Below are positions 25,812-53,684 of a stretch of 64,000 bases of DNA, piece by piece. Position numbers and translations under genes: made by a program. The notes below the pieces were generated by a model. The model searched no databases. It was not told the origin of the DNA and saw only the letters and a program-made list of their open reading frames with translations. Origin of the DNA: Thuidium tamariscinum (lineage: Eukaryota; Streptophyta; Bryopsida; Hypnales; Thuidiaceae); NCBI GenBank assembly GCA_947034885.2, contig OX344757.2:3968001-4032000 (forward strand), in the 5' to 3' direction. Position 1 is the stretch's first letter; each line of letters opens with the position of its first letter.

Positions 25812-26740
25812 TTGTGATAAAATTTTATACTTTGTTTTCTTTCTAAATTTTCGGGATATGTAATTAGACTTTCAAACTTTTGCACAAAGCCTCAATACTT
25901 TGTTTATTCACTGTAGTAGAAAACATGTCCAATATTTAAAATAATTATAGTATATCTATGAACCCTATGGTATATAGACATTTTGGAAGTTTGAGTGACA
26001 TGACTACCTCTAATTATATTGGTAGACACTTGACTGAAGTCTTCAAGTGTTTTACATTATGTATTTTTGAATATAAAGAAAATAAATTTTGGAGGACAAT
26101 CATAATGTATTTGTATAAGTTTTGATGTTGTCTGAAATGAATTTGAAAAAGATGAATAAAAATAAATAAAATATAAGAGATGGAATAGTTAACACGCCAT
26201 AGAAATGACTAAAACAAATACTAAGAAGCATGACATTCATGATGAAAAAGAGTCTAAAATATATTTACAAGCATTAGAAAAAGACAAGAGAAAAAGCCCC
26301 CCAAAATAGAAATTTAATATTAAAAAGAAGGAGTGAAATGGCAAAAAATAAGGTAAGAGAATAGAACAAAATTTTAGAGAAATTAAATAGAAAAGAATGA
26401 AATCTCCCAAAAATGTCTTTAAAGATGGAAAAACGATTGACAAAAGATAAGACAAATGAATTTCATATTCATGTGTGCAATTGTCAATGATTTGTCTGGA
26501 ATAATGTTTGTAGTCATTTAGATTTACTAAACTCTAAAACATTTATTCGATATCTTTCCATAAAGTTTCTAGACAAATATATTTTTGTACTTTTAATTAA
26601 GCATTATATAAATAGAACTTCATACATACTTCAAAATAAGAAAATTAAAAATCTTTTTATGGTCTGCAAATTATTTCAATTGTATGTATTGTATATGAAT
26701 ACATTATAAATGAAGAAGCTAGAGAAAAAATCGTGAATGC

Positions 26741-30788: not shown

Positions 30789-31422
30789 ACTCAAAATTCG
30801 AATAATACAAGTATTGGAAATAAAGTAGATCACAGTGAAAAATGGAAGAAGAATTCTTATACAACTCCAAGTTCAAAGGTGCAATGATTGCAATTTCTAT
30901 AGCGGATAGAAGCAACAAGTATGAAGTAAGTACATAATCTCCCATTCATTCTCAATTATTTCTATCTTAACCATATCGCCATGTACTATAATGAAAAGAA
31001 AGACGTTTTAGAAATAAATTAAAGGACAAAGGTAGCCACTAAATAATATCTTGTATTAAAGGTAGTCATGAACTATGAGAGTTTAAGACCCTAATGAGTT
31101 TCTTAATTTTTCTTCTTAAAATTAATAATTACGAGTTTAGGGCATAATAACAAATACAATTTTTTTTTCTGTCAGACATTTCAATAAAGAAGGCAAACCT
31201 AAAGTAATAAATTATTTGATGAATACTCCTCTTTGTTTTATGGAATTTTGAATAAGAAAATAAGAATAGAGGACTTGGGTGATGGGAATCTAACAATATT
31301 GTTATCATTGCTTTTTTATATAGTCTTTTTTTGTTTTAATAGCTCATCTATTCTCATTTTAAATCCACCTTCCTTGACTTGGTATTTCCTGGGGTAAATT
31401 CGCAATCATGTAACAATTCTTC

Positions 31423-31736
31423 CAAATTATCTAGGGGAGGACAATTCCCGTTTTTTAATAACCTACGTGCGGCGGAATATAGGGTACATTTAAATAATCT
31501 TAGGTAAAATTTATAAGAAATTTACATATAAAATAGGGTACATTAAAAAGGCAAAGTGTTTTAAAAATAAAATAGGGATGATAATATGGCTGATTTTTCC
31601 GCTTTATGGTAAAATAGGGGCTCTTTTAATGTTGCCAAGTAATGATTACAAGTAATTGATAGCCCCCCTAAAAATATCCCACCGCCGCATGTGGGTCCCC
31701 CAAATATACAAAAAGTGTCCTCCCCGGGCAAATTAT
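31423..31736. mobile_element. hAT-type MITE, copy 2, nested in MULE element 1
   Basis: The element is 31431-31728 (298 bp), nearly identical to 21191-21488 and in the same orientation. It has its own 8-bp duplication, CAAATTAT (31423-31430 and 31729-31736). It sits between genes A and B of element 1, so it inserted after that element. The two copies differ at few positions, implying fairly recent activity. Confidence 0.9.
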
Positions 31737-32440
31737 AAATAGAGATATTAATTCAATTTATTTTCTTAAGTACATAACAAAGGTATCTAAGGGAGGAGGC
31801 TCCTAAACCGCTCATCTAAGGGCAAGTCCTCCTTTTTCATGTTTTTTTTTGGATGGTAATATTTTTCACTCATTTTTCAGTGAAAGAAAAATAAACGAGG
31901 AATCTAACACAAGTTGTTTCATATTTTTTGAAGCATTATTGAATTAGTTATGAATTTTCAAACTTAGTTTAGCATAGGGCCCTGTCTATGATCAATAGGC
32001 CTTGCAAACCCATACATGTGCATTTAAAAAAAAATCTAGCTTGCTTCAAAAACTAGCACTGCAACATGTAAAAAGTAATAGTGTTTGTTTCTAAAAGTGT
32101 TCCTTTCTAAAACTGAAATGAATATTAGAATAAATCATTATTTCAGATTTTTGAACACTTGAAAGAAGGTACTGCAACAACTAATTTTTATTTTGAAAAA
32201 CTTCATTGAATTATTAAAAATAAAGAAGCCTTTTTCTGATGGGCCATGATTTAAATCTTTCATTTTTAATGATGTGAGAAGTTCTTCATCACATGATTGA
32301 AGCTTTCATTTTTCAGTCCAACTACTTTGGCATTTACTACTCCATCTCCCCCAAAACTACCGGCATCATAAGTGTGGCAGTGGCACATCAAGAATTTGAA
32401 ATGTACATCTCACTTAAGGGAATAGGAAATTGGCACATTT

Positions 32441-32835
32441 GATATGCAGATTTTTGGAGGCTCCCAAAACTGCCGCCATGAGTCATGAGTTGGCACTCTG
32501 GCAGCTAGGCTAGTCAGAAAATGTGGATCAAAAAATCCGATTTAATTTGATATGTAGATTTTTGGAGGCTCTTAGAATTGTTGCCATGAGTCATGAGCTA
32601 GCAGCCAGGCTGGTCAGAAAATGTGAACCAGAAAATCCGATTTAATTTGATATGCAGATTTTTGGAGGCTCCCAAAACTGCCGCCATGAGTCATGAACTA
32701 GCAGCTAGGCTGGTCAGAAAATGTGAATCAGAGAATCCAATTTTATTTAATATGCAGATTTTTGGAGGCTTCCAAAACTGCCGCCATGAATCATAAGCTG
32801 GCAGCTAGGCTAGTACAGAAAATGTGGAGGCAGAC
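32441..32835. repeat. Tandem repeat, about 100-108 bp x 4, in element 1
   Basis: Units start at 32441, 32549, 32649 and 32749, each with 'gatatgcagatttttggaggct', 'ctgccgccatgagtcatga' and 'ggtcagaaaatgtg' phrases in order. It lies between the nested MITE and gene B. No coding function evident. Confidence 0.85.
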
Positions 32836-32959
32836 CTTGAATTAAGGATTTTAGGCACGTGTAAAGTAAGCCTACAAGTGCTATAACTTGGAGCTCTTTC
32901 ACTTGATGTTATGTTGTAGGTGTTCCCGCAAGTGTTCTCCATGTTCTCTCCATCTCCTT

Positions 32960-33127
32960 ATGCTTGTTCATGATCATAGCTCTTTTGAAGCTCCAATGTG
33001 TAGTAGGAAGAAGAAGAGGCATAGTTCTTTATTTTTTTCTTCATGTAGGGCGTTGAGGAGGTCTCGGATGGCAAGAGGGAAGAGAGCAATTTCAAGAATA
33101 AGTTTGTCTGCAGTTGATGACTTTTAG
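32960..33127 (+). CDS. Gene B of element 1: small basic protein, divergent from gene A
   Basis: The translation contains CSRKKKRHSSLFFSSCRALR followed by RSRMARGKRA. It aligns with GRTRKRRRLLYFSSRKALNK followed by ARMTKRSRGAA at the same relative place in element 2 (48068-48346, also divergent from gene A). Both copies also have MLV just upstream. The start is uncertain: ATG 32960 is used by analogy, but an upstream ATG at 32888 is in frame. A possible further exon (acceptor gatgcgcag near 33344, donor GAG/GTGAGA near 33440) would add a basic segment. The function is unknown; the Arg/Lys richness suggests nucleic-acid binding or nuclear localisation. This copy may be degenerate. Confidence 0.5.
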   Translation: MLVHDHSSFEAPMCSRKKKRHSSLFFSSCRALRRSRMARGKRAISRISLSAVDDF

Positions 33128-33689
33128 AAAGTACTTGAGTTTGAAGGACATACCCTTGGAGAGTAGTCTCAAAATCAGATTGAAGGCGTTCATAGTGTAA
33201 GTTAGTTTAGTTTCATTATTTCAGTGAACGCAATTTGTACATAGGATAAAGCTGAAATCCATACTAAATCCTAAACATTCACTCTTCCGAGATTACTAGA
33301 AAGAATAGATTATTCATGTAAAAATCCTTGAATCGATGCGCAGGAACAGGCCAAAATGGTGAGAACTTTGTGCAGCCAAAGGCAATAAGGAGGAGCAAAG
33401 GACTCTATGATAGGAAACGACGAAAACCTCCATGTAGCTGAGGTGAGAAATTTTACTCTTGTCGTTTTCAATTTGATACCTAGAACTGAAAAAAAATAGT
33501 GCGTGCCCTTGCAACTAGAGAAGCCTCAACTGCCGGCCTGCCAGCCTGCCTGCGCTACCCTGGGCTCACAGAGCTCGGCTGAACCCAACTGTGCGGGCGT
33601 CCGTCCCCAATTATAGGGGCGCACACAATTTTTTTTTTGTTTAAGAGGAACCTGATTCCAGGGTAGCACGAGCTATCACTTGGAGATCA

Positions 33690-33786
33690 GTCGGATCCAC
33701 GGTCATAGGTCCTTTATTAAAAATATTTGAATTTTTTTTTCCTGCTCACAAGCTCATGCTCACAGGCTCGCCAAATAGCAACCCTG
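33690..33786 (-). repeat. Element 1 right terminal repeat (B side)
   Basis: Read inward from 33786 it starts CAGGGTTGCTATTTGGCGAGCC, then GTGAGC motifs, a T-rich tract, and ACCTATGACCGTGG followed by GATCCGACTGAT. An additional CAGGG-type phrase in inverted position occurs at 33659. It matches the B-side end of element 2 (37729-37822). Confidence 0.82.
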
Positions 33787-33796
33787 ATCCATCAAA
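33787..33796. repeat. Right 10-bp target-site duplication of MULE element 1
   Basis: ATCCATCAAA, identical to 25598-25607, directly abuts the CCCTG end of the element. Confidence 0.9.
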
Positions 33797-33810
33797 TATA
33801 CTCTAAGTAG

Positions 33811-37718: not shown

Positions 37719-37728
37719 ATACACATTT
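37719..37728. repeat. Left 10-bp target-site duplication of MULE element 2
   Basis: ATACACATTT lies directly before the CAGGGTTGCTAG terminus and recurs exactly at 53675-53684, directly after the other terminus. Confidence 0.92.
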
Positions 37729-37822
37729 CAGGGTTGCTAGCATGTGAGCCTGTGAGCAGGAACTTTTTTTTTCCAAAAAAGTGGATGAGGATCTGTAACC
37801 GTGGATTTACCTATGACCGTGG
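37729..37822 (+). repeat. Element 2 left terminal repeat (B side)
   Basis: CAGGGTTGCTAGCATGTGAGCC then GTGAGC, a T-rich tract, 'gtaaccgtgg' and 'acctatgaccgtgg'. It shares its start with the right end of element 1, and its internal motifs with all four ends. Confidence 0.85.
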
Positions 37823-38032
37823 TTTTGAAAAATCTATACTATTTTTGGATTGTTAGGATTTAGGGTTTAGAAATTCTTATCTAAAAATTTGGGGTTCATC
37901 AAAATAGCTTGTATTTCCAAATTTTGGATGAAAAAAATTGAGTAGCCTTAGGATTATACGTTTGTTTCCATTCTTTACCATTTGTTTCTTGGAAGTATAC
38001 TGTATTTCGAGAAACATGAAATATTTTATTCA

Positions 38033-38740
38033 CTCACCCATTATTGAAGACGGAGACCTTATAAGAGGTGAATATTTATTTCATTCCCCATTTTTTTTGT
38101 CAGAGGCATTGTAGGAAGTCAATATTTATTTCATTCCCCATTTTTTTTGTCAGAGGCATTGTAGGAAGTCAATATTTATTTCATTCCCCATTTTTTTTGT
38201 CAGAGGCATTGTAGGAAGTCAATATTGATTTCAGTCCCCATCTCGTTTGGTAGAGACATTCCAGAAGGTGAATATTTTTTTCTTTCCCCATTTTTTTTGA
38301 CGGAGATTTTCTACGAGGTGAATGTCTATTTCAATGCCCATTTTTTGGGATGGAAGCATGGAAGGAGGTAAATATATATTTCACTCCCAATTTTTTTTTC
38401 ATGACGACATTGTAGGAGGTTTATATTTATTTCACTCCCCATTTTTTTTAAAGATATTCCAAGAGGTGAATATTTCTTTGAGTTCCCCTTTTTTTGGATG
38501 CAGATGTAGTACGAGGTTCTAGGGATTTGACTCCCCATTTTCTTTCATGAAGACAATGTACGAGGTGAATAGTTATTTCACTCCCCATTAATTCCATAGA
38601 GACTTTAAAGAAGGTTAATATTTATTTAAATCCCCATTTTGTTGGATGCTAACTTTGAAGGATATGAATATTATTTTTTTGACAACTTTTTTTCACGCCC
38701 CCTTTCATGGAGTACAATATTATTTTGTTTCCCATTTTAT
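38033..38740. repeat. 50-bp minisatellite, about 14 units
   Basis: Units contain 'aatatttatttcattcccca' then 'ttttttttgtcagaggcatt' then 'gtaggaagtc'. Three units between 38099 and 38220 are essentially identical with a period of exactly 50 bp; flanking units are degenerate. It lies just inside the left terminal repeat of element 2, like subterminal repeats of some large DNA transposons. The short open frames on both strands (38322-38538) are read-throughs of this repeat. Confidence 0.9.
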
Positions 38741-41557
38741 AAGTGAAGAATCCTTTTATATTTGAGAATAAGATTTATTGTAAGATGCCATAAGATATTC
38801 AATTAGATGTAATCCCATCAACTAATCGGGCCCAATAATTTCCTGGATTTAGGCTGTTTAATGAAAGGGTTCATATTGACCTTTTTCAAACTCATAATTT
38901 GTATATTAGCATACTATACTAAGGGTGAATTTCAAGGTACACCCACAATTCTAAAAATTAAACTTTGCTTCTAAGAAATACAATAATGCTCTTCAACTCA
39001 TTAAAAGAAGTTCAAATACTTCATTTGGTAAAGTTAAATTTAGGTAGTTCTTCTCCGGGATTAAGGCTTAGAATACAAGACTGGATGAGAAAAATCACAC
39101 AACATATAGCTATAAAGCACACAAATCCAATCATAATGAAAATCCAAACATACTAATTTGACTTATGAGATACGTCAATCTCATGAGTCTAATATGCAGT
39201 AGACTCCGCTGCAGAGTCCCTATCACTAGAAGAGTCTGAAGTCTCTCTACCTTCTGATGCTGATCCATCTATAAATTCTAAGACATTTAGAGCATACGAA
39301 GGTTTACGGTGTTTGCGTTTGGAAGTGCCAAATTCCGCAAACACTGAAGCTAACTACTCTGCATAGACTGGAAGATCGAATGGCTTCTCTGGGCTCAAAA
39401 TGAGTCTTCGTCTCTTCTTTACTTGGTCCTGCACGATCACTCCCTCGCTGCTGTAAATTCAATGGAAGCATTGTTAGATGTATGAAACATAACAAAGATC
39501 AAGAATTTGAGAAAATTGAATTTAGGAAAAACTTACTTATTAGGTTTAGGGCGCTGAACAAATTTTCGAGGTACTATCACCATGGCCTCTTGGTCTTGTG
39601 ATAATACAATTGTGGGCTCCTCCACATTTGGATCTGCGGTCACTGGAGAAGCAGACTTCTTCATTGGCAAGAGGACATGCTAAAAAATCCTCTTATCTTC
39701 CTCCAACGCTACAATATGCCTCCCGGTAGCACAACAAGCAGTAATGGATGCACCCGCCAAAAACCATAATTTACATCATCTATATAATGATCTTCTATAA
39801 AAATAATTTCATTGTGCAAAAGTTGTAGAACAAGAATTCACCTGTAGATGCAGTGCAATCTACCACAATGTCCCCTTCATCCGTGGTGCCCTCGATGATG
39901 AATTGAATGAAGTGCGGGTCCTTCTCTCGAGCTCCTTGCTAGGCCATTCGATCCATGTCATTCACCAACATCGTGTCCTCCGTGGTGTAGTTCATGAGCA
40001 AGTCATCATGCCGAAGGCATACCTTTGCCTTCAGCATGGTCTAAGAGTGCCTGAATTCAAAGTTCGATTTTCCCTTGGCTCCCAGATGTTTGACAAAAAG
40101 GGTGATGCCAAACTTCAATGTCTGCAAGCATAATCAAAACTCACATGAGATTAGGTAACAATAAAAAGCAAAAAATTCAAATATATTAAATTATTATAAT
40201 GAAATGATAGAGTCTTACCGTTTGGTCGGGGTGAATCGCCGATGTAAGGTGCATCCGATTCATGCCCATCCAATCTTTCTTCTTCTTGATGTTTGGGTAC
40301 TCCTGAAGAAGTCCTGCAATGGTTTCCAAGGAGTCCTGGCCCCAAGAATGAAATACTATAAGGCACCCGTCATCCTGCAAATGTTTGTGTGCAAAGTTGA
40401 AAGCCTGAAAAATTGTAAAGTAGTCCTTATCTGCGTTCCAATAAGGAATGTGCTTCAACCCCCCTATCTCTAGCACTGGCAAGTTCTCCTGGCAGTCAAA
40501 GATCATGAGATCAAATCCTGGCTGTCAATTAACCACCCCATCATACACCCTGGCCTTACCTACGACCATCTGCAAGAACATTTCTTCAATACATGAGTAT
40601 TTCCAAGAACAAGTTAAGAAAATAAGCGCTTGTTAGTCAAATAACAATCTACATTTGTAAGAGAAAGAAGAATATTACCTTTTGTAGAAAATCCATCACC
40701 TCTGTATAAGAGTTTGGTCCCCGGACCCCTTCGTTGTCGACCACCTCTGAAATTGAGACATCTAGAAGCAATTCCTCTGAGGTGACATCATCGTCATCTC
40801 CAAGAGCAATGACTTGTGTCCCTTGTGTTATAACCTCCTCCGTGAAGTCTGGAAGTACAGCCTTCCTCTTCAACCCACCTTGTGATGCACCCTGCATTTG
40901 GGAGCCCTCATCCACTGCAGACGACGTTGGAATGTCACTTCCTTCTTCCTTCTTCTTTCCTTTACCTTTCTCCTTCTCCTTGTCCTTCTCCTCCTTCTCC
41001 TTCTCCGCCAATTTGGCCAAACGCTCCGCCTCCTTCTTCTCCTTGTGCTCCACAACGAGTTGAATCCGTGCTGCCTTCCTCCTGTCCATGGTCTCCCTCT
41101 TTGCAATAGCCCTCTTCCTCTCATTCTCACTAAGTCTTGGAAACTCGTCAACATCCATGTTGATGGTGCCTTGTCCTTCCAAAGAAGCCCGCAATTCTAC
41201 CTCTGACGGATGCATGTAGGAGACTGGGCAGTCAATGTACCATCCACCACCACTGAGATGTGAGGTAGTGAAGGTCTTGAGCTGAGTCGGAGTATACATG
41301 CAGTCTTTGGAGTTGCGGTCCAGAAAATTCTTCAAGAAGGTAGGTAGGTCCTCAGTCTTGATTGCTTGTTTACCTTCGAGCTCATATTTGAAGTACTTGC
41401 AGTTTCAAGAGGATTCAATAAATACAAATGATAAAATTCAATCTCAACTACCAAATGATTTGAAAACCTCTTCGAAAAGATACCAATTACAAAATATTTT
41501 TTCTAAATTCTGAATTTGAGATGGAAAATTTTAACTTCAAAGTCTGCAAGGGACAAG

Positions 41558-41642
41558 AACTAGGGGGGTCCTTGAGCAATGTCCGTGAGTTAGCTCGGAT
41601 CCGAGCTAACTCTTGAAGGTAGGTGAAGGACCCCCCCTAGTT
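41558..41642. repeat. Intronic GGATCC palindrome H2
   Basis: Outer arms AACTAGGGGGGTCCTT and inner arms GAGTTAGCTCG meet at CGGATCCG. It lies in the intron 41396-42030 of the cargo gene. With H3 it forms a tandem duplication of about 240 bp that includes flanking 'cagatggaaaa' and 'cttcaaagt' phrases. Confidence 0.85.
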
Positions 41643-41810
41643 TTTGATATCCTACTTGATTTTTTGATTTTCTTGAAATTTTTTTTTGGTGATCACATGC
41701 AAGAATGGACTTTTAATTCCTCTGAATTCACTCTAAAATCGCAGTTTCAGATGGAAAAAAAACAAACTTTGAGACTTCAAAGTTTTCATGGGGTAAGATC
41801 TAGGCGGGTC

Positions 41811-41879
41811 CCTGAGCATTCTCCTCAACATAGCTCGGATCCGAGCTATGTCTATGAGGATGCTCAAGGACCCTCCTAC
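41811..41879. repeat. Intronic GGATCC palindrome H3
   Basis: Arms TAGGCGGGTCCCTGAGCAT / ACATAGCTCG and their near-complements meet at CGGATCCG. Same intron as H2. Confidence 0.85.
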
Positions 41880-44800
41880 TTTTTCATTTCCTACTTCAAT
41901 TCAAGATTTTTTTGAAATTTTTTTTTTGTGCCCCAATGCAAAGATTGACTTATAGGACGTTCAATAACTATAATGACAAGCATGAGCTATGATTTTTAGA
42001 GACTCACCGGAAAAGAACCCTTCTCACTACCTGCTTTGATCCCTCAAAGGTGTTGAAGTTATCGCTCTTTTTGAAGTAGTTAGCTCCATGAAGGTGAGCT
42101 AAAAATCCTTGATCCCAGATCTTTGTTCTCCAACCTTCCAAATAGTCAAGGAGAGTCTCTGGTTTCAGTGGAACCTTCATATCTATAGGTATGTTGTCAT
42201 GCCTGACAATACCCTCAAAGATATCCGCCACTACATCCTCAATCTGGATCAAAGAAAAAAATATTACAATTCACATGATTAAGAGCACTATGCCTCATGA
42301 TTACAAAATTTAAATTACTATAAACATCAAATACATAAATTGTTAAACTTAAAAACAAACTTCTAAGTAAGTTACTTACTCCAACATACCAAACACAACG
42401 ATTTAGAAATGGTCCAAGTAGTGTCTCAGACACTGGCCTAGGTGGGAAACGCCTTGCATTACGTGAAGGAATAGAAGAGTTCCACCACTACAAGAATTTG
42501 ATCTTGTGAGCTGCCGTTGTATTGCACGTTGCAACCATTTGGAGTTTCTTGAGAGTCATCTCGGGAACCTCATTTGTAGTCCAGTGCTTCTCAACCTGAA
42601 AAAAATGATGTGAGATTCACACTTCTAATTTTCAAGGTATAAACCATTTTCTTAATTTTTTGAAATATACAAAGTAGTTACCTCTTTCAAAAAGTCGGGC
42701 TCATTAGCCGGATTAGCAACGGAGGCCAATTTTGACATCTTCACATTGAGTTTTCCGGTCCTCTCTTTTGCTGCAAATCTCATAGCGTGAGCAAGTCCCT
42801 TCGCAGTTTTCTCCTCCTCCGGCGTGATCTCGTTGTACTTTCGTACTGCAACATCTGCAGCTTGAGCAATCTCTTGCTGCACAATTCCAAGGCCAATCAA
42901 AGTGAACAAAAGCTTTAAGAACAAAACTAAACATACTAAAATACATTGTATTGAAAGGAAGAATTATCACAATAATTTCATACCCGAAAAACAAAGGATG
43001 TGAAGACCTCTTGTGGCATAGAATACCACGTCTTCTTCAATTTTGGTGCAGTATAGCGTTTAAGCTCAGATGGCCTCAACATTTCGATGAAGCGCTCTAT
43101 GGGTAAAAGCCCATACTTCTGAACCCTATAAAGGGTATGAACCAAATTGGTCTTCACGTGTGAGCCCTCCGTAGACCTGAAAATCAAGAAGGCTTTATAA
43201 GTATATGCATTTCATATTATATAAGTGTAGATGAAATAGTTTCAAACTTTTCTAAAAACATAAAACAAAACTTCAAAGACAAAATTCAAGTAAACAACTT
43301 ACTTGTTAATGTCATGCATGACATGCATAGCAACCTCGATTTTGCCCTTCGTGTCCAACACAATTGAGTCCACTGCATAGTGCCAAATTATGTCTTTGGA
43401 GTGCATCCGGGAAATATGATTCATCCATGACAGCAGGCGGTGATTCCCGTCACACACAAAGAACTTCAAGTTCTTTAAGAACCTCAATTCGGGAACAGAC
43501 TGGACGTGGGCTTCGAAGATCTCATTCTTCTCTCTCCATAAAGGCCCCCATTTCTCTATCTCCTCCTCTGTGAATTTGGAGCATTCTCCGGCTTCATTTG
43601 TGGTTGTGACGTAGAAAACTGCTGCTCCATCAAGGTAGCCCTTTGCAAATTCGTGTTCAAGCAATTCAAGATCGCAAGACAAAGTAGGTCTTACCATGGA
43701 CATCGCTACCATCCGGCATAAGGGAATTTGAAGCCGAAACAGATGATCAGGCTTCATCTTCAAGCCTGCAATGGTATTCACAGAGTCTACCTTGTAATAT
43801 TCGCAGAGGTCATCCTCCAACAGGTCCTTGTCATCTTCATCCATAAATTCCTCCACCACGTCTTCACTTGTGACACCTCTCCTCGCTTCACCACCAATGG
43901 GGGGTTGACTTGTAACATCCATGTTTTGGGTTTCCATGATAGTTTCTTCTTGGGAAAGAACTACTGGAGACACTTCCATCTGCAATAATAAAACACCCAT
44001 AAATGTTTGACCACAAGTCTATTTTTATAATGCAAAAATGCAAAGAAGAATTCAAGTTGAAATGAGATGAAAACTTTCAAAAGATAGAGTACATAAGTAA
44101 TGCATTAATTTTGAAAGATGCAAGGCTTTATAGTGCCATTTGAATATAAAACTTTTTTGAGAAAGAGAACCTAGTCAATCTCTACATCTTCCTCAGAGTC
44201 TGAGCTGAGGTGAATGAAGACTGGAACCTGCGGACCTATAGGACCACTACAAGCACAAGTACATGTCTCTTGCAGTGGTGGACCATCAATAGTGATTGAG
44301 ACCTGCGACTCAGAACTATACTCAGTCTCTGAGCTCTCTGAAGACAAGCACCTAAATCCCTTTCTTCTAGCAATCTCAGCAAGCCTCAAGGCATGCCTTC
44401 GCCTTCCTGCATTTGGGTCACTGACGCGACTAAGCACGGAACTTTGGAAAGCATCTACTGCACGCTCAGCGGCATCCATGACATCTCCAAAACTTACCAA
44501 GTCTTCCGCTATAGCTTGCTCCTCCGAATCACTTGAAATATGCTTTCCTAGACTCTCAAATCCAAGTGCTTCTGAAGGTCCCGCTTGGTGAACAACTTGA
44601 ACGCTTGGAGGCACTGGTGAAGCTGAAGATGCACCCTCTCCACTTTGTCTCTGTTGATTGAATAAGACATTCAAATTTCAAATATTCAATAAACATTACA
44701 TTAATAGCAATATAACCACTTCCTTTCAATTCTAGGCATTCAAGTTAATAAATAAGACCTAATATTCATGAAAATCATTTCAAAGTAAATTAAATATAAT

Positions 44801-45070
44801 TGATTGCAAAAGAATATTAAAAGCTTACTCAAAACTAATGTGTTATATAATATTTCTTATGTGGAGCATTATAATTTGAAAGTCAGAGCTTTCTCTTGTT
44901 CAAAAATCATTAAATTCACATGAAAAGCCTCTTACAACTTATTCCAATTACATGTAATTAATATTTCTACAAAAATCTTACAAAATTATTAAAATCTCCT
45001 CTGAATGGCTATTGGTGTCAGTTTTTTTCAAAAAAAAGAGTTCGGAAACGCAAAAATTTTAATTAGTATA

Positions 45071-45160
45071 AAGAATTTTGGGGGTCATCCCAGTTCCCAT
45101 CTGACGTAGCTCGGATCCGAGCCACGTCAGACCGGAATTGGGAGGACCCCCGAAGTTCTT
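45071..45160. repeat. Intronic GGATCC palindrome H4
   Basis: Arms start AAGAATTTTGGGGGTC and converge on TAGCTCGGATCCGAGC. It lies in the first intron (44651-46151) of the cargo gene. Confidence 0.85.
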
Positions 45161-45349
45161 CACACTGTTGGATTCATTCCTCCTAGATTCGATCCTAATC
45201 TAAACCGTAGTTTGAATACAATGATCCCTCCACTAACGCAATCAATACAGAAATTGGATACATTGAAGAATCAGAGGTCACTGCTCTCAAATCTCGGAAG
45301 CAGACGTTGCACAAAAACGTTGAAAAACTTCGAATTCACAAAAATGGGG

Positions 45350-45421
45350 GGGGGTCCTCTGGATTCACGTCCGACATGGCTCGGATCCGAGCCACGTCGG
45401 ACGTGAATCCAGAGGACCCCC
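45350..45421. repeat. Intronic GGATCC palindrome H5
   Basis: The most perfect of the series: 36-bp arms starting GGGGGTCCTCTGGATTC match with a single difference around GGCTCGGATCCGAGCC. First intron of the cargo gene. Confidence 0.9.
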
Positions 45422-45605
45422 AAGTTTCTTACTACAGTCGGAGAGAATGAGTTCTTCATTGAACAAAACAAAATCATGACTAAATAGTATCCACAGGAAG
45501 CTCATGTCTCTCGGCCAGTTTCGTCATGGATGCGAATGATTCAACATGAACCATGCGAGAATCTCAACAGGGTACGGAAAAAATTTTGAAAACTCCCCGA
45601 ACTGC

Positions 45606-45677
45606 GGGGGTCCTACCGAATCCACAAGATGTTAGCTCGGATCCGAGCTAACTCGGCCGACACCAACCGGGACCCCC
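45606..45677. repeat. Intronic GGATCC palindrome H6
   Basis: GGGGGTCC ends and a TTAGCTCGGATCCGAGCTAA centre with divergent middles of the arms. It is tandemly duplicated with H7, including flanking 'gagaatctcaacagggtacg'. Confidence 0.85.
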
Positions 45678-45767
45678 TTACATTCTGATTTTTCAACATG
45701 AACCAAGCGAGAATCTCAACAGGGTACGGAAATTTTTTTGAAAACTGCATGAAGAGAGAAGAATTGC

Positions 45768-45838
45768 GGGGGTCCTACCGAATCTACATGATGTTAGCTC
45801 GGATCCGAGCTAACTCGGCTGACACCAACCGGGACCCC
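45768..45838. repeat. Intronic GGATCC palindrome H7
   Basis: A near copy of H6 (same arm sequence and flanks), about 162 bp downstream, arising by tandem duplication. Confidence 0.85.
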
Positions 45839-46959
45839 TTTACTTTCTGATTTGAGATGGACTTGCAAGTTCGGAATGACGAACACCACCTGCCGCACTG
45901 AGTTGTAGCTCAATAACCACCTCGTGAATTCACACTCCCAAGCAACAGGATGTACGCTCATCGAATCTTGACAAGGCAAGTATCTAGATTCTCTCACGAA
46001 GACTCATGTGTGATGAGATTCACTTGCCGCTCCAGGTGCTTTCTTCGAGGCTCGACCCAAGAAGAATAAAAATCTACTCACGTTCACGCGCCTAAAATTT
46101 TCCTGACTATAAGGCACACACAAGAAAACGAGAAAGAACATGACTGTGCACCTGCTGTGTCTTGCGAGTCTTGCTTCGAGGTGGAAGCGGATCTGCTGTG
46201 CCCTCCCTTGCTCGATTCCTTGTCGACCTCCTCATCATGGAATCCTACTCGCACAACACAGCTTAGAATGAGAACCCTGAACGAAAAATGAGAATTGATG
46301 AGAAGAGCTCAGTGCCACAAGAAGTCAGTGGCTTCAGGAATTTGCCGCGCCGCTACAACTTCCGGCTTTATCAAGAATTTCTAATTTGAGTTTGTTTACT
46401 GTTTTGCGTGCTCCGCCAAGCACTGGAATCCAGATACATTCTCGATCAAAGTGACCTACCAGGTCATTCCACCCGCAGCTTGGGGGAAAGGTGGCGCGCA
46501 AAGAATTCTGTAGATGCCTACTTTAGACGTCGATCCTGATTCCGTCGATCCTGATTCCAAATCAGGAATCAAATTCCCCCTTAATTAAGTTGCGGCAGCC
46601 AGAAAGGCGCGTGATGTCGTGGCAAGCCAGACTCACAAAAGAATCCGGATTTTGCATGATCCAGGCTACTGACGTGGCGCTTTCCAGGCCAAAGGAATAG
46701 TTCGCTCTGTGCTGGGCACCCGGGTGTGTTATGAACAATCCAACTTGCAGATCATCGTAGCTTGTATGCATGCGGCTAAGAACGACATGCAAACGAAATC
46801 TAAAAACGGTCGACACTGCGAGAATCAAACTACACCAGGTTGACTTGCAGGCGGAATCCAGGTCGCTCAGATCTAGGTTCAGTCGATACTCGATAACCGT
46901 CTTACATGCAAATATGAAATCCTAAAATCAGTATTGCGGGATCCGGCTCCCCCGAGCTC

Positions 46960-47392
46960 AAACTCGATTTATCACACACGTTGACGATCAGAGCAAGTTC
47001 CCGTAAGCACACGTGGCTGGAAATGATTTGTTTTCACACTTGAAATCTGGCGTGGCATTCCAGCCCTCAAGACCTAGTCGGACACGTGGCGGTCCAGGAT
47101 TTGCCTTCAAATCTTGAATCTGACGTGGCGATTCCAGACCTGAAAGCCTTCTCGGACACGTGGCGGAGATTGATTTGTCTTCCCACCCTGGAATCTAACG
47201 TGGCGATTTTAGACTTGAAAGCCTCTTCAGACACGTGGCAGAAAAATATTTGTCTTTAAACCCTAAAAGCTGATGTGGCAATTCTAGACTTCAAGGCCTC
47301 TTCACACACGTGGCTTTACTCTTTGAGAAAGTTTCAGTCACCAAATAGAATCATTTCCTACTAAATTCTAATGAGATTTCCACTATAAATAG
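46960..47392 (+). promoter_or_regulatory. G-box/ABRE-like tandem array with downstream TATA box
   Basis: CACGTGGC occurs at 47010, 47083, 47157, 47232 and 47307, a period of 73-75 bp. Between successive copies lie related motifs (GCGTGGC 47050, GACGTGGC 47122, AACGTGGC 47197, GATGTGGC 47272). The units are tandem repeats of about 75 bp. A TATA box (TATAAATA, 47384-47391) follows on the plus strand. CACGTGGC is the plant G-box/ABRE core bound by bZIP and bHLH factors. The array lies between the 5' end of the cargo gene (minus, from 46238) and the end of gene B. Because G-boxes are palindromic, the array could act on the cargo gene or on a plus-strand transcript from about 47420. Confidence 0.7.
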
Positions 47393-48067
47393 AGAATATT
47401 GTTAATTTGAAGTACAAGTTCATAAATGGAATGTAGTTGATGATTTGATATGTGGCTTTCAATCCTATTTTGCCCTAAAAGTCATTTTTTCACCAAATCC
47501 TAGTATTTACCATCTACTTGATAGCAAGTTGGGAACAGTAAATGATTTCAAAGGCTTTCATCTATAGTTTCTTACAAAAATGAGTCTAGATTTATTCTTT
47601 GCCCTAGAATAAAACATAGTGGCTACTTCTAATAGAAAGATGCCTACTTTAGATACTCTGTAATATCAAGTGCTTTTTATCTCATAGTGATTGTTCTCAT
47701 CCTCTTGTTCTCAAAAATGGCATTTTGTCTATAGAACAGGACTGCTACTGGAAGGATTACATCTCACTTGTTTATTGAAAGCTTTTCTATTGTAAACACT
47801 CAAGCATAACACTCATGTGCTTTCACTTTGTACGTTCTAAAGACCCTTCGACATCTCTCTCAGTGCGTATATAGGTCATGGCCATGAGCATCACAGTTTT
47901 GAGTATTGTACTCCATTCTTAATACTTCAAATGCAAGAAGTACTCTAAGTACTTAAAAATATCAAAAGCTCTACTGCCCTTTGATCAATAGTGTATACAG
48001 AGGACTCGTGATAGTAAGAGGAGTATTTGAGAAATCTTACATTTTCAGAATTCGGTGCCCCTACATC

Positions 48068-48346
48068 TTATTGTGTACTTCTATTATCCACCACTGTCTC
48101 CTCGACTCCCTCATTGCTATCGCTCGGAACATCGTCTTCCCCGACACTACTCCCTGCCTCAAAACGCAAGGTTCGACGAAGATCTCTACCTCTTGGTTGA
48201 GTAGTCTTTGCTGCCCCTCTACTTCTCTTCGTCATTCTAGCCTTGTTTAAAGCCTTCCTAGATGAGAAATAGAGTAACCTACGGCGCTTCCGTGTTCTTC
48301 CTTGTTCCAAGCTAAGGAAAGAAAGTCTCCTATCTTCTACAAGCAT
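48068..48346 (-). CDS. Gene B of element 2: small basic protein, divergent from gene A
   Basis: An uninterrupted 92-residue frame: MLVEDRRLSFLSLEQ, then GRTRKRRRLLYFSSRKALNK, ARMTKRSRGAAKTTQPRGR, and an acidic tail (GEDDVPSDSNEGVEE). Homologous to the ORF at 32960-33127 in element 1, and placed head to head with gene A in both. Conservation of position and sequence suggests a real element gene, perhaps a DNA-binding accessory. No known domain was recognised. An N-terminal extension or upstream exon on the minus strand is possible. It is the only element gene here without a stop. Confidence 0.6.
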   Translation of the reverse strand: MLVEDRRLSFLSLEQGRTRKRRRLLYFSSRKALNKARMTKRSRGAAKTTQPRGRDLRRTLRFEAGSSVGEDDVPSDSNEGVEETVVDNRSTQ

Positions 48347-49100
48347 GAAGTGAGAAGCAAATACGTGATAATTATCGGTCTCTTGCTTAAGAGGTAAACA
48401 GAACTACAAAACACATATGAAGAAGCTCGTTGGTGCCTCCCTCTTATGGCAAAGTGGACAATTCTAGTGAGAACGCCACGTTACGGTGAGTTTAATGGAG
48501 GAACGTGGGAGTGTGGTGTCACATGTGTGAAGGAACCTAGTTGTAGGGGCGCCGCCAAAATTCAATTGGAAAATGCAGTATTGTCCATCTTGTCCTTGTT
48601 AGTTTCTTTAAATTTCCGCGGCACTCGATTTCAAAAGTACTTCCGCGTCGGTTGTGGAGGCTCTGTTATGTCAGTTCTTAAAGGAATAATGATGTAGGAT
48701 TCCGCCGGCGCTATATAGTCCTGCACATTTGAAAATACAAATTAAAAATCCGATTAGAGACGCCATTTCTAGTGTACTGGTCTTTAATTAATTACAAGTG
48801 CCTGTCCTTTTTTTTTGAATGTTTGATCTTACAGAAGTGCTTATGTTAGGTAGGAACGCCTTTCTATTAGGACAGTAGATTTAATTATATATACTATTTT
48901 GAGCTATAGCAAAAGATGGTAATAATTGAAGAATCTCTAGCAATTTGGCGGACATTATTATCTAAATTTTGAATTTATACAAGAGGGAGAAAACATGGTG
49001 AAGCTCAAATGACGTGATTGTTGTATTCCTTCTTACCTTGTGTGCTATGTAGGTTTCCTTGTCTTCTCCTTCTCTTCCAATCCTTCAATAAGATTCAACT
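48347..49100. promoter_or_regulatory. Shared divergent promoter region of genes A and B (element 2)
   Basis: About 750 bp separate the divergent starts of gene B (minus) and gene A (plus). An open plus-strand frame at 48446-48697 has no counterpart recognised in element 1 and is not called as a gene. A TATA-like 'atatatacta' lies near 48885. The region is assumed to hold both promoters. Confidence 0.4.
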
Positions 49101-51260
49101 ATGGCTTCCATTCGAGTAGATGGGCATGCTGTTCCTATTGTGTTTTCAGTAGTAGACGGTGGATGTGCTAGAGTTGCCAGCCACCTTCTCCATGTTCGAT
49201 TTAAGTTTGTAGAAAACTCTATATATGTTGAGGAAGAAAAAATGTTGGAATGAGGAGAAGTACATCAGTCTGTCCTTGTTGACATGTCTATAGAAGATGG
49301 AAGACGTTGCTGGCACCTTCCTCTGGGAAACTACAGAGCATATGGGCTTCCATTGTCTGCACTGAGTGCATCTATTGAAATCCTCAGTCGCCAATCAGTT
49401 AATTCCACTGTAGATATGCCTAAACCACCACATGCCGTTGCACTGAGCCCACCTCTTCATGCTCTACCAATGAATGAGATGCATACAGTCCTTCGTAAGG
49501 TGAAAGTAGAGAGATTAGATACTATCATAGAGTTGTCTTCCGATTCCGAAGGAGAGCTTGTAGATTGCAAGTCCAAGAAGCCTCATGCCTCTGTTCCCCT
49601 CGCATCATGCAAGATGGAAAGATTAGAATCATTTTCTGATATTCCATCTAGAAGTCCCTCAACTTCGTCACTACCACTTCTTCTTGTACACCCGTATGGA
49701 GCAGGGAGAGAAAGCATTATGGAATGTTTGAAGAGACTCGCTACAATGCGCCGGTCTCGCAATGAATTGTCGACAATGGATCTAGATACCCTTAAACACC
49801 TTCAAGTTCCATACCTTCCAGCAGTATTTGACGGAGATGTCATCTTTGAACTGCCCCCGTGTCGCTCATCTTCTTCCTCGAGAGGTGCCCGAAACTTGGA
49901 GGGAATGGACAAGCGGTATGACAGACATCCGTGGTGCAAGCTCATGACCACGAACATCTACAACTCTGACAACTTAAAATTCCGTAAGTCGTACTATGTT
50001 GGCCATCTCAGTTGTGAAAATCCGAATTGTGATTATTTAAAGAGAGCTTCTAAGAAAAATGAAATAGATTGGACTGGCTATACTGTGTTTCCTTTTAGTC
50101 CGGGAGAGTGTCCACTAGCAGATTCAACTCTAGTATGCAAAGTCTGCAGAACTTCACCTTCCTATCTTAGTGAATGCAAAGCTAGGATATACTATGCATA
50201 TGTTGATAACCCAGAACTTAGTAGGGCTGCAATTCACTTTGGAAAGCACGAACATCCTGTTACTAAGGGGATGTATAGGGATTCTGCGGAAAAAATTTGC
50301 GGACTCATAGCAGAGCAAGTGGAAAAGACACCCATGGCCACAAACTCTGCTATTGCTTTATCTGCTAGTAAAGAGTTCTTAATGAGCTACTTGTTCCATA
50401 ATGGAGAGGGCGAGAAAAAGATGTTGAGGGAGGAAGAAATGGAGGAGGTCATGGATCGCTTTCAATACCTAAGTAGTCCAAGTATTTGCAATGTTATTTC
50501 TTCTTTCCGTTCTAACAATCGAGGAGGAGTGATTGACAACATTATGACTATGAAGAGAGAGTCCAAGTTCGAATTCATACACGACAGTGTCTTCCCTGGG
50601 CAAGGGAAGGAAAAGGTATACATTTTCAAGATGCTTACTGAAGGCCCAGGGAGTGGGGTGGACCTCGTGAAGCGCATGCAAGAAGGAGGTGATCTTCAGA
50701 ATGCTTGGTTGATGTTTGACCACGTGAAGCGCGTGAAGGACTGGACCACAATGGCTTGCCACGTATATGATACTCAGTACAAAAAGGTGATGACCATTGG
50801 AATATGCGATATGCAATCCGAAGACACCGAGATTCAAGTACAGTTTTGGAGAAGCTTGAATATGGTAATGCATCAACATGGAGTGACTCATCCAAACTTC
50901 AAGGAATTTATGGCGGATAGCGCCATGGCCAATTGGAATGCGGTACGCATTGTGTACGGAAGCGGTTCTGCTAATGTTGCCATGGAGAATCGAGAAAGAA
51001 CATGTTTTCTGCATTGGAGTACCTCTCTCCATAAGCATACATAGAAGTACATCAAAGAAGCATTCCATCAACAACACATTTCATTGTGCAAGCAATACAA
51101 GGACTCAAAGAATATGGACCAAGCAGAGATACGGTACCTAGCCATACGGTCATGGTGGCTATCATCTGGAGCTGCCAATGAAGATGCACTTCATCACTTG
51201 GACCATTGGCTAGCTTTTTGGCATTTTCGTTACCGGCAATGGGGAGGCTTCATGGACATG

Positions 51261-51773
51261 GTATGTTTAATCATTAATTTCAATTTGTATACCAATTTGA
51301 AGTTTGAATTTACATTCTCTAATACAAAGTTCAGTTCAATGTAAAATCTGATTTCTGTTGAAGTGGAAGTGTAATTCTCTTTTCGAGGGTTTTTTTGAAA
51401 TTTTTTTTTAATTTTGTACTTCAAGATATGGAAAATAGGGGGTCCGGGTAATACTAAATGTACATGCCTCGGATCTGACGGTTCTCATCCAAGTATCAGC
51501 ATGACCCCCTCAATTTTATTCCTAACCTCAAAAAATGAACATCAGTAGGTATGCAATTCAAATATATTTGTCTATTTAGACTAGATTTTTTTTGAATTAG
51601 TCTGATTTTTAGTAATTCAATACGGATATATCTTTCTACAATGAGAAGTCCTTGTAAGTCGTAATTACTATTACAATGTGTATTAAATTGTGACCCTAAT
51701 ATTACAATCTAAAAGTTTGTTGTCTTTGGACTATAAATTTCTAACTATTTTGGAAATTTTTGTTCATTTGTAG
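51261..51773 (+). other. Gene A intron (element 2) with palindrome H8
   Basis: Donor ATG/GTATGT and acceptor tttgtag fit, and the flanking codons match those around the element 1 intron (28128-28665), so the intron is ancestral. Inside, at 51438-51509, is a decayed palindrome with GGGGGTCC / GACCCCC ends and a CTCGGATC centre. Confidence 0.8.
51438..51509. repeat. Intronic GGATC palindrome H8 (degenerate)
   Basis: Ends GGGGGTCC and GACCCCC are 72 bp apart, as in H5 and H6, with a partly conserved centre (CCTCGGATCTGACGG). It belongs to the same family as H2-H7 but lies in the transposase intron instead of the cargo gene. Confidence 0.7.
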
Positions 51774-53474
51774 AAGTTGAATCTTGAAGAGATGTTGGAC
51801 TTACCATCGTGTAATCTATCTAAAACGGTGCATAATAAGTGGCTACAAATGTCTGGAAAGCGAGGGAACAACTTGTTCGATGCAACATGTGATGACAGTA
51901 TCCGTACTTGGATGCAAATGACAAACTATCGTGCCTATTTGAGAGGTCATGCATCAGGATCAGGGCCATCTAAGGGTGAGTTGAAGCTCAGAGCTGCTAG
52001 GAGTGGGGATCCCAAAAAAATAGCAGATACTTTGAATGAATTGCCTGGTTCAGAAGGTGTTGGAACTAGAGTACCGCACTTAGAGGGAGAAGAAATATTT
52101 GGGAGTATAAAGAGGAAGTTGGATGTGCCCATCGGCGATGCAGGAGATTCATATAGACCGGACAAAGTGAACTTTTCTCAACCTCGTGTTCGAACAAGGT
52201 CCACAACAACTTCTTCACCTTCTTTGCAAAATAAGGGTAAAGAATTAGAAGATTCTACTGTAGGACATGTTACGATTGCATTTGAAAGTGACTGCGACAT
52301 ATCTAAATGGCACATAGCAAGGATTAGCCACAAATCCAACGCAAGATGTCAAGCTCAACAACAGAGATCTAGCATAAAGTGCACGTCAAAAATTGCAAGA
52401 GGAAAAAAGGGAACTCCAGCTCCTACCTATCGTGGACGAAAAGAGGAATATGGCAGTAAACAAGAGGTTGTGGCAAATTTCTGGTTCTGTTGAGACGACA
52501 TTGTACGATGTGTAAAAGGTACAAAGCGGAAGTGGGTAATTGATTGGCCATAGGTCCTGGAGGTATGGCCTGTTCTGAGTGGAACCAATCTCAACCGTGA
52601 AGAGACATTACTCTTGCAGCATGCAGGATTCCACCTCCAAGTACGCCCAACATTATCACCACGGCGATTATTCAGCATGTCAAAGATTTTCACCACTGTT
52701 TTGTATGACAAACCTTCACCAAAGAACCCGGACACGTATCCTACAATCAGGAATAATCGAACCATTCGAAGGACGGTAAATGTACCAACTACAGAACAAC
52801 GGAATAAATGGGAAAGTGCAGGGAATGTCAAAGGACAAATTTTGGAGGTCACATTACTCCCTTTTCCTGGACTTGGTGCAATTGTGTTACTTGAGACAGG
52901 GTCAGATTCTAACAGAAATGCATATCAAGTTACACTAGGAATGTTCCCAACGTGCACATGTCCAGATTTTGTGAATATGGCTGTTTCAGCTATTGGTGGT
53001 CGTCAACATTACGTGAATTGCAAGCACTTGTACTATTTGTATAGGTACTTTTGCAAGATGGATGTCCACGAAGACAAATTCATTCATCCACCAAGTTATA
53101 GCTTCAATGAGTTGAAGCTACTACTACTCCGAGCGAGAATTATTGCAGTTCCAGAATAGGCATGGCTAGATATGTTGGTGTATTTGAATTGCACTTATAA
53201 ATATATATTATGATTGCCATTTCAAGTGAATTTTCTCGTATTACAGAAGTATTGAAAACTATTAATGTATTCACAAAGTGTAACAGAATGTTTCATCAAA
53301 AAAATTTATTGAATTAAATTGAGATGCATGAATACAACATTTTTTCTTATAAATCCTTTGCTAGTTTTGTGGATAATGGACAAACTACATGCTGAAAATT
53401 TTCCCTTAAACCTTGAAAAGCCTCACCCTTTAGCGAATAAAAGTTCAATTCAAAAATATAACATTTCACCTAAA

Positions 53475-53674
53475 CCACGGTTATAGGTGACACGGTCACA
53501 GGTCATATTTTCACTATTTTCCGTAAAAAAAATCAACTTTTCAACCAAAAAAATAGGAAAAAAAAAAATTTCAAAAAATTTTCAATTTTTTTGGTTTCCA
53601 GGCTCACAAGCTCACAGGCTCCACACTCACAGCTCACAGGCTCACCACTCCAAGCTCGCACACTAGCGTCGTTG
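53475..53674 (-). repeat. Element 2 right terminal repeat (A side)
   Basis: Read inward from 53674: CAACGACGCTAGTGTGCGAGC, then repeated GTGAGCCTGTGAGC motifs, a T/A-rich tract, 'gacctgtgaccgtg' and 'acctataaccgtgg'. It matches the left end of element 1 in order and spacing style. Confidence 0.85.
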
Positions 53675-53684
53675 ATACACATTT
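53675..53684. repeat. Right 10-bp target-site duplication of MULE element 2
   Basis: ATACACATTT, identical to 37719-37728, directly abuts the CGTCGTTG end of the element. Confidence 0.92.

What the first reader, a model, noticed from the sequence alone, without database searches (positions are those of the whole stretch)
37719..53684. A 15.9-kb MULE-like element with perfect 10-bp target duplication, carrying a ParB-methyltransferase gene
Seen: ATACACATTT on both sides, related inverted termini, and between them a transposase gene, a small basic gene, and a 12-exon ParB-methyltransferase gene that element 1 lacks. Known: MULEs duplicate 9-11 bp and can carry captured genes. Inference: this is a large MULE subfamily with a DNA-modification-like cargo gene. 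A transposon bringing its own methyltransferase could influence its methylation state or that of its host, a link I have not seen described for plants.
Basis: partly seen in the sequence, partly recalled or inferred. Interest (0 to 1): 0.95.

Follow-up and report, generated by a model that had tools for sequence, protein, structure and literature searches.

The report
Jumping gene carrying its own DNA-modifier
A 16-kb plant-type jumping gene, now broken, carries besides its transposase a second large gene for a DNA-methyltransferase-like protein and unusual mirror-image DNA sites in its introns, which suggests (but does not prove) that it once marked its own DNA, perhaps to escape silencing by its host.

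Summary
Element 2 (body 37729-53674) has a perfect 10-bp duplication. A related element (25608-33786) has its own and shares both terminal types. The transposases differ by dS 1.69 but dN/dS 0.10. MULE is the best fit (10-bp duplication, SWIM-like finger), but no MULE Pfam model matches, so membership is not established. The cargo is a 12-exon gene on the opposite strand with a DNA amino-methyltransferase domain (PADLOC E 1.8e-6; PF01555 E 9.8e-4, below cut-off); the ParB half is only weakly supported. Both genes carry in-frame stops and the catalytic motif is altered. The idea is not wholly new: ParB-methyltransferase proteins are reported in brown, red and green algal transposons (PMC12477816). 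New are the MULE-like carrier in a plant-like genome and seven 72-bp palindromic cassettes (GGGGGTCC-N20-AGCTCGGATCCGAGCT-N20-GGACCCCC; core drifted in one), all in introns of element 2, with a related palindrome in the transposase intron of element 1. They recall the intronic target motifs of the Arabidopsis VANDAL/VANC anti-silencing system. Self-targeted DNA marking is the favoured mechanism, untested. No host genome is held, so other copies could not be examined.

The parts
37719..37728 (.). target-site duplication, left copy (ATACACATTT)
53675..53684 (.). target-site duplication, right copy (ATACACATTT)
37729..37822 (+). B-type end of element 2: terminal CAGGGTTGCTAG, GTGAGCCTGTGAGC at 37744, CCTATGACCGTGG-type motifs at 37792 and 37810
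   Evidence: 7 of 7 window hits of each motif lie at the four element ends
53475..53674 (-). A-type end of element 2: terminal CAACGACGCTAG (rc), GTGAGCCTGTGAGC-type repeats 53602-53645, CCTATAACCGTGG-type motifs at 53475 and 53490
49101..53159 (+). transposase gene, degenerate (in-frame stops 49251, 51042, 52491, 52551), one intron about 51257-51773, SWIM-like CxC..CxH about 52953-53027
   Evidence: dN/dS 0.10 against element 1
48071..48235 (-). small basic ORF, 55 aa; not scanned against family libraries
39192..46238 (-). 12-exon cargo gene (46238-46152, 44650-44228, 43979-43303, 43176-42984, 42876-42682, 42595-42380, 42243-42031, 41395-40679, 40569-40219, 40121-39842, about 39757-39537, about 39449-39192), 6 in-frame stops
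43303..43979 (-). exon with the putative ParB-like domain (FVCDGNHRL signature)
   Evidence: weak
39537..40569 (-). exons with the DNA amino-methyltransferase domain: catalytic position (DCQE) first, AdoMet-binding motif last (beta-class order)
   Evidence: PADLOC E 1.8e-6, PHROG E 2.3e-6, PF01555 E 9.8e-4, hhalign
41564..41635 (.). 72-bp palindromic cassette 1 (cargo-gene intron 41396-42030)
41804..41875 (.). 72-bp palindromic cassette 2 (same intron)
45080..45151 (.). 72-bp palindromic cassette 3 (intron 1 of the cargo gene)
45350..45421 (.). 72-bp palindromic cassette 4 (intron 1), 35 of 36 bases self-complementary
45606..45677 (.). 72-bp cassette 5 (intron 1), arms not self-complementary
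45768..45839 (.). 72-bp cassette 6 (intron 1), tandem duplicate of cassette 5
51438..51509 (.). 72-bp cassette 7, core diverged (transposase intron)
38020..38648 (.). tandem array of about 50-bp units near the B end
47009..47314 (.). tandem array of about 75-bp units between the divergent genes
25598..33796 (-). element 1 (related, lacks the cargo gene): body 25608-33786, 10-bp duplications 25598-25607 and 33787-33796, degenerate transposase on - strand from 30788 to 26744
28388..28489 (.). palindrome centred on TCGGATCCGA in the transposase intron of element 1, at a position corresponding to cassette 7

Best explanation
Element 2 is a dead copy of a large, once-autonomous MULE-like DNA transposon in a plant-like genome. 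Shown: boundaries, 10-bp duplications, a sister element, a transposase under long purifying selection, a full-length cargo gene with a DNA amino-methyltransferase domain on the opposite strand, and 72-bp palindromic cassettes that within this window occur only in introns of the two elements. Inferred: the cargo protein is a transposon accessory factor of the ParB-methyltransferase kind known from algal transposons. Its N-terminal, ParB-like part would bind repeated sites in the element (best candidates: the AGCTCGGATCCGAGCT palindromes) and its C-terminal part would methylate an amino group on adenine or cytosine there. That mark would change how the host silencing machinery or the transposase treats the element, working like (but with no tested relation to) the VANC anti-silencing proteins of Arabidopsis VANDAL MULEs. 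This copy can probably no longer do so.
For: Boundaries and family. Transposase: 1038 codons compared with element 1, dS 1.69, dN 0.17, dN/dS 0.10. CxC..CxH kept in both elements; SWIM E 0.032-0.058, sub-threshold. Cargo: complete 12-exon gene, stop load similar to the transposase's (6 against 4). Methyltransferase: 14 of the 15 PADLOC families listed are type II or III methyltransferases, best E 1.8e-6 over residues 57-235 in collinear order; PHROGs; PF01555; hhalign score 53.9 against a maximum of 30.9 in 200 shuffles (partly circular choice of phages). Same layout (ParB+methyltransferase, opposite strand, 1104 aa) in Ectocarpus Sola1-1 (PMC12477816). Cassettes: seven copies of exactly 72 bp, all in element 2, none found elsewhere in the window. 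Over the 15 pairs of the six copies with intact core, centre 14-16 of 16 and ends 13-16 of 16 alike, arms 11-15 of 40 in 12 of 15 pairs. All 7 CGGATCCG of the window, and the five best palindromic centres of the window, lie in such sites. 8 of 8 sites lie in introns of the gene models. VANC21 motifs likewise sit in tandem repeats, including introns of VANC21 and VANB21 (PMC5735166, passages).
Against: No binding, methylation or expression data. ParB assignment is weak. The catalytic position is DCQE, so this copy, or the whole lineage, may be inactive. Element 1 keeps a related palindrome but has no cargo gene. The cargo gene is known from one copy only; its movement with the element elsewhere is untested. 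No Pfam MULE domain match. GATC is not enriched in element 2.
Confidence: 0.45

Rival explanations
1. Passenger cargo. The element is a real MULE-like transposon, but the methyltransferase gene is a captured or inherited passenger with no role in the element's life (Pack-MULE-like).
For: Catalytic position altered; gene absent from element 1; stops in the gene. MULEs are known to capture genes (PMC6431247, passages).
Against: Pack-MULE captures are typically short (that review, of the set of Jiang et al. 2004: most 1-2 kb, none over the 7-kb full-length element). Here a complete 12-exon gene lies with its own introns, and the same kind of protein is reported from unrelated algal transposons. 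The transposase intron and the cargo introns share the same cassette type.
Confidence: 0.25
2. Nested composite. A separate mobile unit carrying the methyltransferase gene inserted into a simpler MULE-like element after it had landed; the outer duplication would stay intact.
For: Element 1 lacks the gene; the single copy cannot exclude it.
Against: I noticed no second pair of termini or duplications in the repeat scans, though no dedicated search for nested ends was run. Cassettes of the same 72-bp design occur in the cargo gene and in the transposase intron.
Confidence: 0.12
3. The 72-bp palindromes are an unrelated hairpin MITE or foldback family, or are kept palindromic by template switching alone, and have no tie to the cargo protein.
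For: Strong hairpins in six of seven; tandem duplication with flanks explains some copies; element 1 has one without having the gene; other foldbacks exist in the window.
Against: No clear direct target duplication (2-10 bp) flanks any of the 8. None of the 8 lies outside the elements, which make up 37.7% of the window. Length is fixed at 72 bp in 7 of 7 while arms differ almost at random level in most pairs, which is not how copies of one MITE usually look.
Confidence: 0.3
4. Chance boundaries: the 10-bp match is coincidence.
For: 5 of 100 shuffles of the window hold two or more copies of the 10-mer.
Against: Two elements, each with an exact 10-bp duplication abutting the same two terminal types, and two subterminal motifs found only at the four ends.
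Confidence: 0.01

Closest known systems
ParB-methyltransferase accessory proteins of algal transposons (Ectocarpus Sola1-1_Ec32; red and green algal cases cited there as Petroll 2025 and Iyer 2011, not held and not read)
   Same: Large DNA transposon, methyltransferase gene transcribed opposite to the transposase, predicted amino-methyltransferase with a ParB-like part, protein of about 1100 aa (1104 there; 1107 here from the internal ATG, 1277 by the 12-exon model).
   Different: Carrier there is Sola1; here an element with a 10-bp duplication and a SWIM-like finger in a plant-like genome. Clustered intronic palindromes are not mentioned in the section read. No sequence comparison was possible.
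VANDAL MULEs with VANC anti-silencing proteins (Arabidopsis; PMC5735166, abstract and passages seen)
   Same: MULE with an accessory protein and repeated short sites in non-coding DNA and introns of its own genes.
   Different: VANC causes loss of methylation and is not described as a methyltransferase in the passages seen; its motif is short and different (YAGTATTAY); no homology tested.
Retrotransposons that carry cytosine C5 methyltransferases (dinoflagellates, charophytes; PMC5890265, abstract and outline seen)
   Same: A transposon with its own DNA methyltransferase.
   Different: Class I element and C5 enzyme; here class II and an N4/N6 amino-methyltransferase-type domain.
Phage ParB-like + DNA methyltransferase gene neighbourhoods (Klebsiella phage VLCpiS13f, Escherichia phage C1)
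   Same: ParB-like gene next to a DNA methyltransferase gene: directly in VLCpiS13f, with one small gene between in C1.
   Different: Separate, short genes of bacterial viruses, very distant in sequence.
MULEs with extra genes (Pack-MULEs; Phytophthora MULEs with SET domains, PMC6446971, passages and part of table 1 seen)
   Same: MULEs with extra open reading frames.
   Different: The word methyltransferase has 0 occurrences in that survey's main text.

Membership tests
MULE superfamily | Target-site duplication of 8-11 bp | tested here: met
   Two elements, each with an exact 10-bp duplication; range from PMC6446971
MULE superfamily | Terminal inverted repeats | tested here: met
   About 20 bp, 14 of 22 alike within an element, 17 of 22 between like ends; shared inverted subterminal motifs
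MULE superfamily | MULE/Mutator transposase domain by profile | tested here: not met
   No Pfam MULE or transposase model at E<=5 for the first 959 residues, nor at E<=1 for pieces covering the rest
MULE superfamily | SWIM-type zinc finger | tested here: inconclusive
   PF04434 E 0.058 and 0.032, below cut-off; CxC..CxH kept in both elements
MULE superfamily | DDE RNase-H-fold catalytic core | tested here: inconclusive
   Model of the core mean pLDDT 42.5, too poor to use; motifs judged by eye only
Beta-class DNA amino-methyltransferase (PF01555 kind) | AdoMet-binding motif at the C-terminal side, collinear domain | tested here: met
   (PF01555 itself E 9.8e-4, 19.6 bits, under its cut-off of 26.7)
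Beta-class DNA amino-methyltransferase (PF01555 kind) | Catalytic (D/N/S)PP(Y/F/W)-type motif | tested here: not met
   DCQE at that position (phage alignment); motif definition recalled
ParB-methyltransferase transposon accessory protein | Methyltransferase gene inside a DNA transposon, opposite to the transposase | tested here: met
   description
ParB-methyltransferase transposon accessory protein | ParB-like N-terminal domain | tested here: inconclusive
   PHROG E 0.13, none on trimmed query, no Pfam or NCBIfam hit, hhalign 1 of 200 shuffles as good, model pLDDT 36.7
ParB-methyltransferase transposon accessory protein | Sequence homology to the algal proteins | not testable with these tools
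   No algal or plant protein collection held; source papers not held
VANC-type anti-silencing system | Homology to VANC, or shown loss of methylation | not tested
   Offered as a functional analogy only
Pack-MULE | Captured host gene fragment with a host paralogue | not testable with these tools
   No host genome held

The most novel reading that the evidence does not exclude
A self-marking transposon: the MULE-like element carries both a sequence-specific DNA amino-methyltransferase and its own array of parS-like palindromic target sites in its introns (AGCTCGGATCCGAGCT inside a fixed 72-bp frame whose arms rewrite themselves but tend to stay palindromic), so that enzyme and sites together form a VANC-like but chemically different (6mA or 4mC) anti-silencing or copy-recognition system in a land plant.
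Probability: 0.2. Interest if true: 0.9.

Novelty: new variant of a known kind. Interest (0 to 1): 0.6.

Why it matters
How transposons escape or exploit host DNA methylation is an open question, and true amino-methylation (6mA, 4mC) of plant nuclear DNA is disputed (recalled). A plant-type transposon with its own amino-methyltransferase and a candidate set of target sites would make both questions testable: one can ask whether intact copies mark the palindromes, and whether this alters silencing. It would also extend an accessory-protein class, so far seen by me only in reports on algal transposons, to another type of carrier and probably another lineage, and hint at repeated recruitment or exchange between transposons.

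Tried and rejected
Host-genome tests (other copies, empty site): impossible, no genome held. Relatives in viral contigs for the methyltransferase part, a transposase stretch and the ParB exon: none confirmed. The cassette pattern in viral contigs and genome contigs, exact match: 0. tblastn of the ParB part against phages: 4 records, all terminase matches at E 6-8. tblastn of the methyltransferase part against phages: 104 records at E<=10, of which 60 were listed, none of these better than E 0.07; by my count 30 of the 60 are annotated as methyltransferases, 9 as DNA polymerases, and 10 are PaP2-type structural, ejection, hypothetical or unannotated matches; against plasmids 9 records at E>=4. 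Suggestive only. The hhalign tests use phages picked by that same search and are partly circular; the PADLOC, PHROG and Pfam scans are not. A PDB search with the methyltransferase part gave 2 chance hits. AlphaFold models of the ParB exon (pLDDT 36.7) and the transposase core (42.5) were too poor, so no fold search was run. NCBIfam: no useful hit. Sub-threshold Pfam matches of the transposase to QueF (E 0.016-0.023) and Smr (0.091) were taken as chance. PF02195 (ParB_N) in six phage records: 0 of 6, although two of them hold genes annotated ParB-like, so the phage proteins used as a ParB yardstick are themselves divergent. A looser terminal motif with up to 3 mismatches had 31 hits all over the window and was dropped for stricter motifs; these stricter motifs were read off the ends themselves, so only their absence elsewhere is informative. 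The MITE idea was tested by looking for flanking direct repeats: none clear. GATC density is not notably raised in element 2 (3.01 per kb against 2.52 and 2.91). A small-gene counterpart in element 1 near 33.05 kb was looked at by eye only and is not claimed. What I say of print rests on 10 text searches of an open-licence library; a MULE or land-plant ParB-methyltransferase was not seen in their listings, but most subscription papers, including the two cited originals, are not held.
Full report
What was checked. No host genome is held, so all evidence comes from the 64-kb window, profile libraries, phage and other collections, and papers.

Boundaries. ATACACATTT stands at 37719 and 53675 only. 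The element proper starts CAGGGTTGCTAG and ends, read inward, CAACGACGCTAG. Because the element starts with C and the right flank goes on with C, the match could be read as 11 bp; 10 is preferred because element 1 gives exactly 10. Element 1 has ATCCATCAAA at 25598 and 33787 (a third copy of that 10-mer lies at 60098) and the same two end types in opposite orientation. At the two element lengths 1 of 55,801 and 2 of 48,034 offsets have identical 10-mers, the duplications included. Two motifs read off the ends, CCTRTRACCGTGG and GTGAGCCTGTGAGC (up to 2 mismatches), have 7 hits each in the window, and all lie within about 200 bp of the four ends, pointing inward (shuffle means 1.08 and 0.16). 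Since they were chosen from the ends, the informative part is that they occur at all four and nowhere else. They are natural candidates for transposase binding sites (inference). In all six pairings of the four 260-bp ends the local alignment beats the best of 200 shuffles.

Transposase. The two transposases align over 1038 codons with dS 1.69, dN 0.17 and dN/dS 0.10 (Nei-Gojobori counts with Jukes-Cantor correction): a long history of selection for function in both lineages. Both copies are now broken: four in-frame stops in element 2 and twelve in the codon comparison for element 1 (final stop not counted), with a five-residue deletion in element 1. A CxC..CxH finger near the C-terminus is kept in both, with SWIM E-values of 0.058 and 0.032, under the cut-off. 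No MULE domain model matches (one search saw the first 959 residues), so membership in the MULE superfamily is not established; duplication length and finger make it the best fit (survey PMC6446971, passages and part of table 1).

Cargo gene. It has six in-frame stops, and one exon acceptor is not AG. The C-terminal part is a DNA amino-methyltransferase domain. PADLOC lists 15 families, 14 of them type II or III methyltransferases, the best E 1.8e-6 over residues 57-235 of 251 in collinear order. PHROG methyltransferases reach E 2.3e-6, and Pfam PF01555 E 9.8e-4 (under its cut-off). With the longer query and the earlier exon junction PF01555 was not listed, and with the earlier junction the best PHROG E was 3.1e-5. 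The order, catalytic position first and AdoMet motif last, is that of the beta class (class definition recalled). The catalytic position reads DCQE instead of a DPPY-type motif, so this copy is probably inactive in more than one way. The ParB label rests on a DGNHR signature. It has PHROG ParB E 0.13, which vanishes on a trimmed query, where an unrelated tail-chaperone family leads at E 0.06. hhalign against ten phage ParB-like proteins gives a score that 1 of 200 shuffles reaches. The ParB half is therefore plausible but not shown by sequence here. In Klebsiella phage VLCpiS13f a ParB-like gene is directly followed by a DNA methyltransferase gene; in Escherichia phage C1 the two lie close, with one small gene between.

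Palindromic cassettes. Element 2 holds seven sites of exactly 72 bp with the plan GGGGGTCC, 20 variable bases, AGCTCGGATCCGAGCT, 20 variable bases, GGACCCCC (ends with up to one mismatch each). In six the 14-bp centre GCTCGGATCCGAGC is perfect; in the seventh (transposase intron, 51438) it has drifted. Over the 15 pairs of these six the centre agrees at 14-16 of 16 positions and the ends at 13-16 of 16. The arms agree at only 11-15 of 40 in 12 pairs; the exceptions are 37 (tandem pair 45606/45768), 26 (45080/45350) and 23 (tandem pair 41564/41804). Yet within a copy the arms pair with each other at 12, 15, 17 and 19 of 20 in four copies; they do so at 4 and 5 of 20 in the tandem pair 45606/45768 and at 9 of 20 in the seventh. 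Single-strand folding beats all 200 shuffles for six; the seventh, folded in a stretch shifted by two bases, does not. Nothing of this plan was found elsewhere in the window. All seven CGGATCCG of the window are in such sites, and the five most palindromic 72-mers of the window are all of this type (scores 35, 34, 31, 30, 28 of 36; next 22), one of them in the transposase intron of element 1 at about the same place as the seventh cassette of element 2. In element 1 the ends differ (GGAGTAAC) and the palindrome reaches 102 bp, so equal length is not claimed there. No clear direct duplication flanks any of the eight. All eight lie in introns of the gene models. A constant centre and ends with near-saturated arms is what selection on binding sites plus arm-to-arm template switching would leave (inference).

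Host. CAG/CTG trinucleotides are depleted outside the genic 6-13 kb stretch (observed/expected 0.21 in 33.8-37.7 kb and 0.52 in 53.7-64 kb, against 1.32), together with CpG (0.17 and 0.40 against 0.72). This is the trace of CG and CHG methylation known from plants (recalled). An SRP68 gene lies within about 6-13 kb. The species is not known.

Mechanism. Favoured: the cargo protein is an accessory factor that binds the element's own repeated sites and modifies DNA there, shifting silencing or transposition in favour of the element. The nearest worked example is VANC of Arabidopsis VANDAL MULEs, which binds motifs in tandem repeats, including introns of VANC21 and VANB21, and causes loss of methylation (PMC5735166, passages). 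The nearest match in design is the ParB-methyltransferase of algal transposons, for which self-binding and self-modification have been proposed (PMC12477816, section 5 read in full). Shown here: anatomy, constraint on the transposase, domain identity of the methyltransferase. Not shown: DNA binding, enzyme activity, mobility of the cargo gene, homology to the algal proteins.

Verdict. A real element and a real methyltransferase-type cargo; the concept is known from algae. The MULE-like carrier in a plant-like genome and the intronic palindrome system are the new parts. A new variant of a known kind, worth following in the host genome.

Noticed in passing
window 21187-21486 and 31427-31726: A 300-bp repeat, 95% identical between copies, with inverted ends (GGGGAGGAC...GTCCTCCCC); the second copy sits inside element 1. 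Probably a MITE.
   Followed up: no
window 32437-32826: Tandem array of 100-bp units (3.8 copies, 85% matches) in element 1, about 1 kb from its B end; element 2 has a 50-bp array near its B end (38020-38648).
   Followed up: no
window 47009-47314: About four 75-bp tandem repeats containing CCACGTGT-type cores between the divergent genes of element 2; possible regulatory or binding array.
   Followed up: no
window about 6000-13000, minus strand: Exons of an SRP68 gene: three of the ORFs scanned match Pfam PF16969, E down to 2.6e-21.
   Followed up: partly
window 59131-59469: Fragment like a DDE_1 (pogo-type) transposase (PF03184, E 0.0016, below cut-off).
   Followed up: no
window 33845-34114: Foldback with 112-bp arms, 81% complementary, just outside element 1.
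   Followed up: no
window 33797-37718 and 53685-64000: Strong depletion of CAG/CTG and CpG compared with the genic stretch at 6-13 kb, suggesting CHG and CG methylation of the flanks.
   Followed up: partly
L001 1143-2674 and L006 1168-2857: Phage ParB-like gene next to a DNA methyltransferase gene (directly in L001; in L006 with one small gene between), a possible source module.
   Followed up: partly
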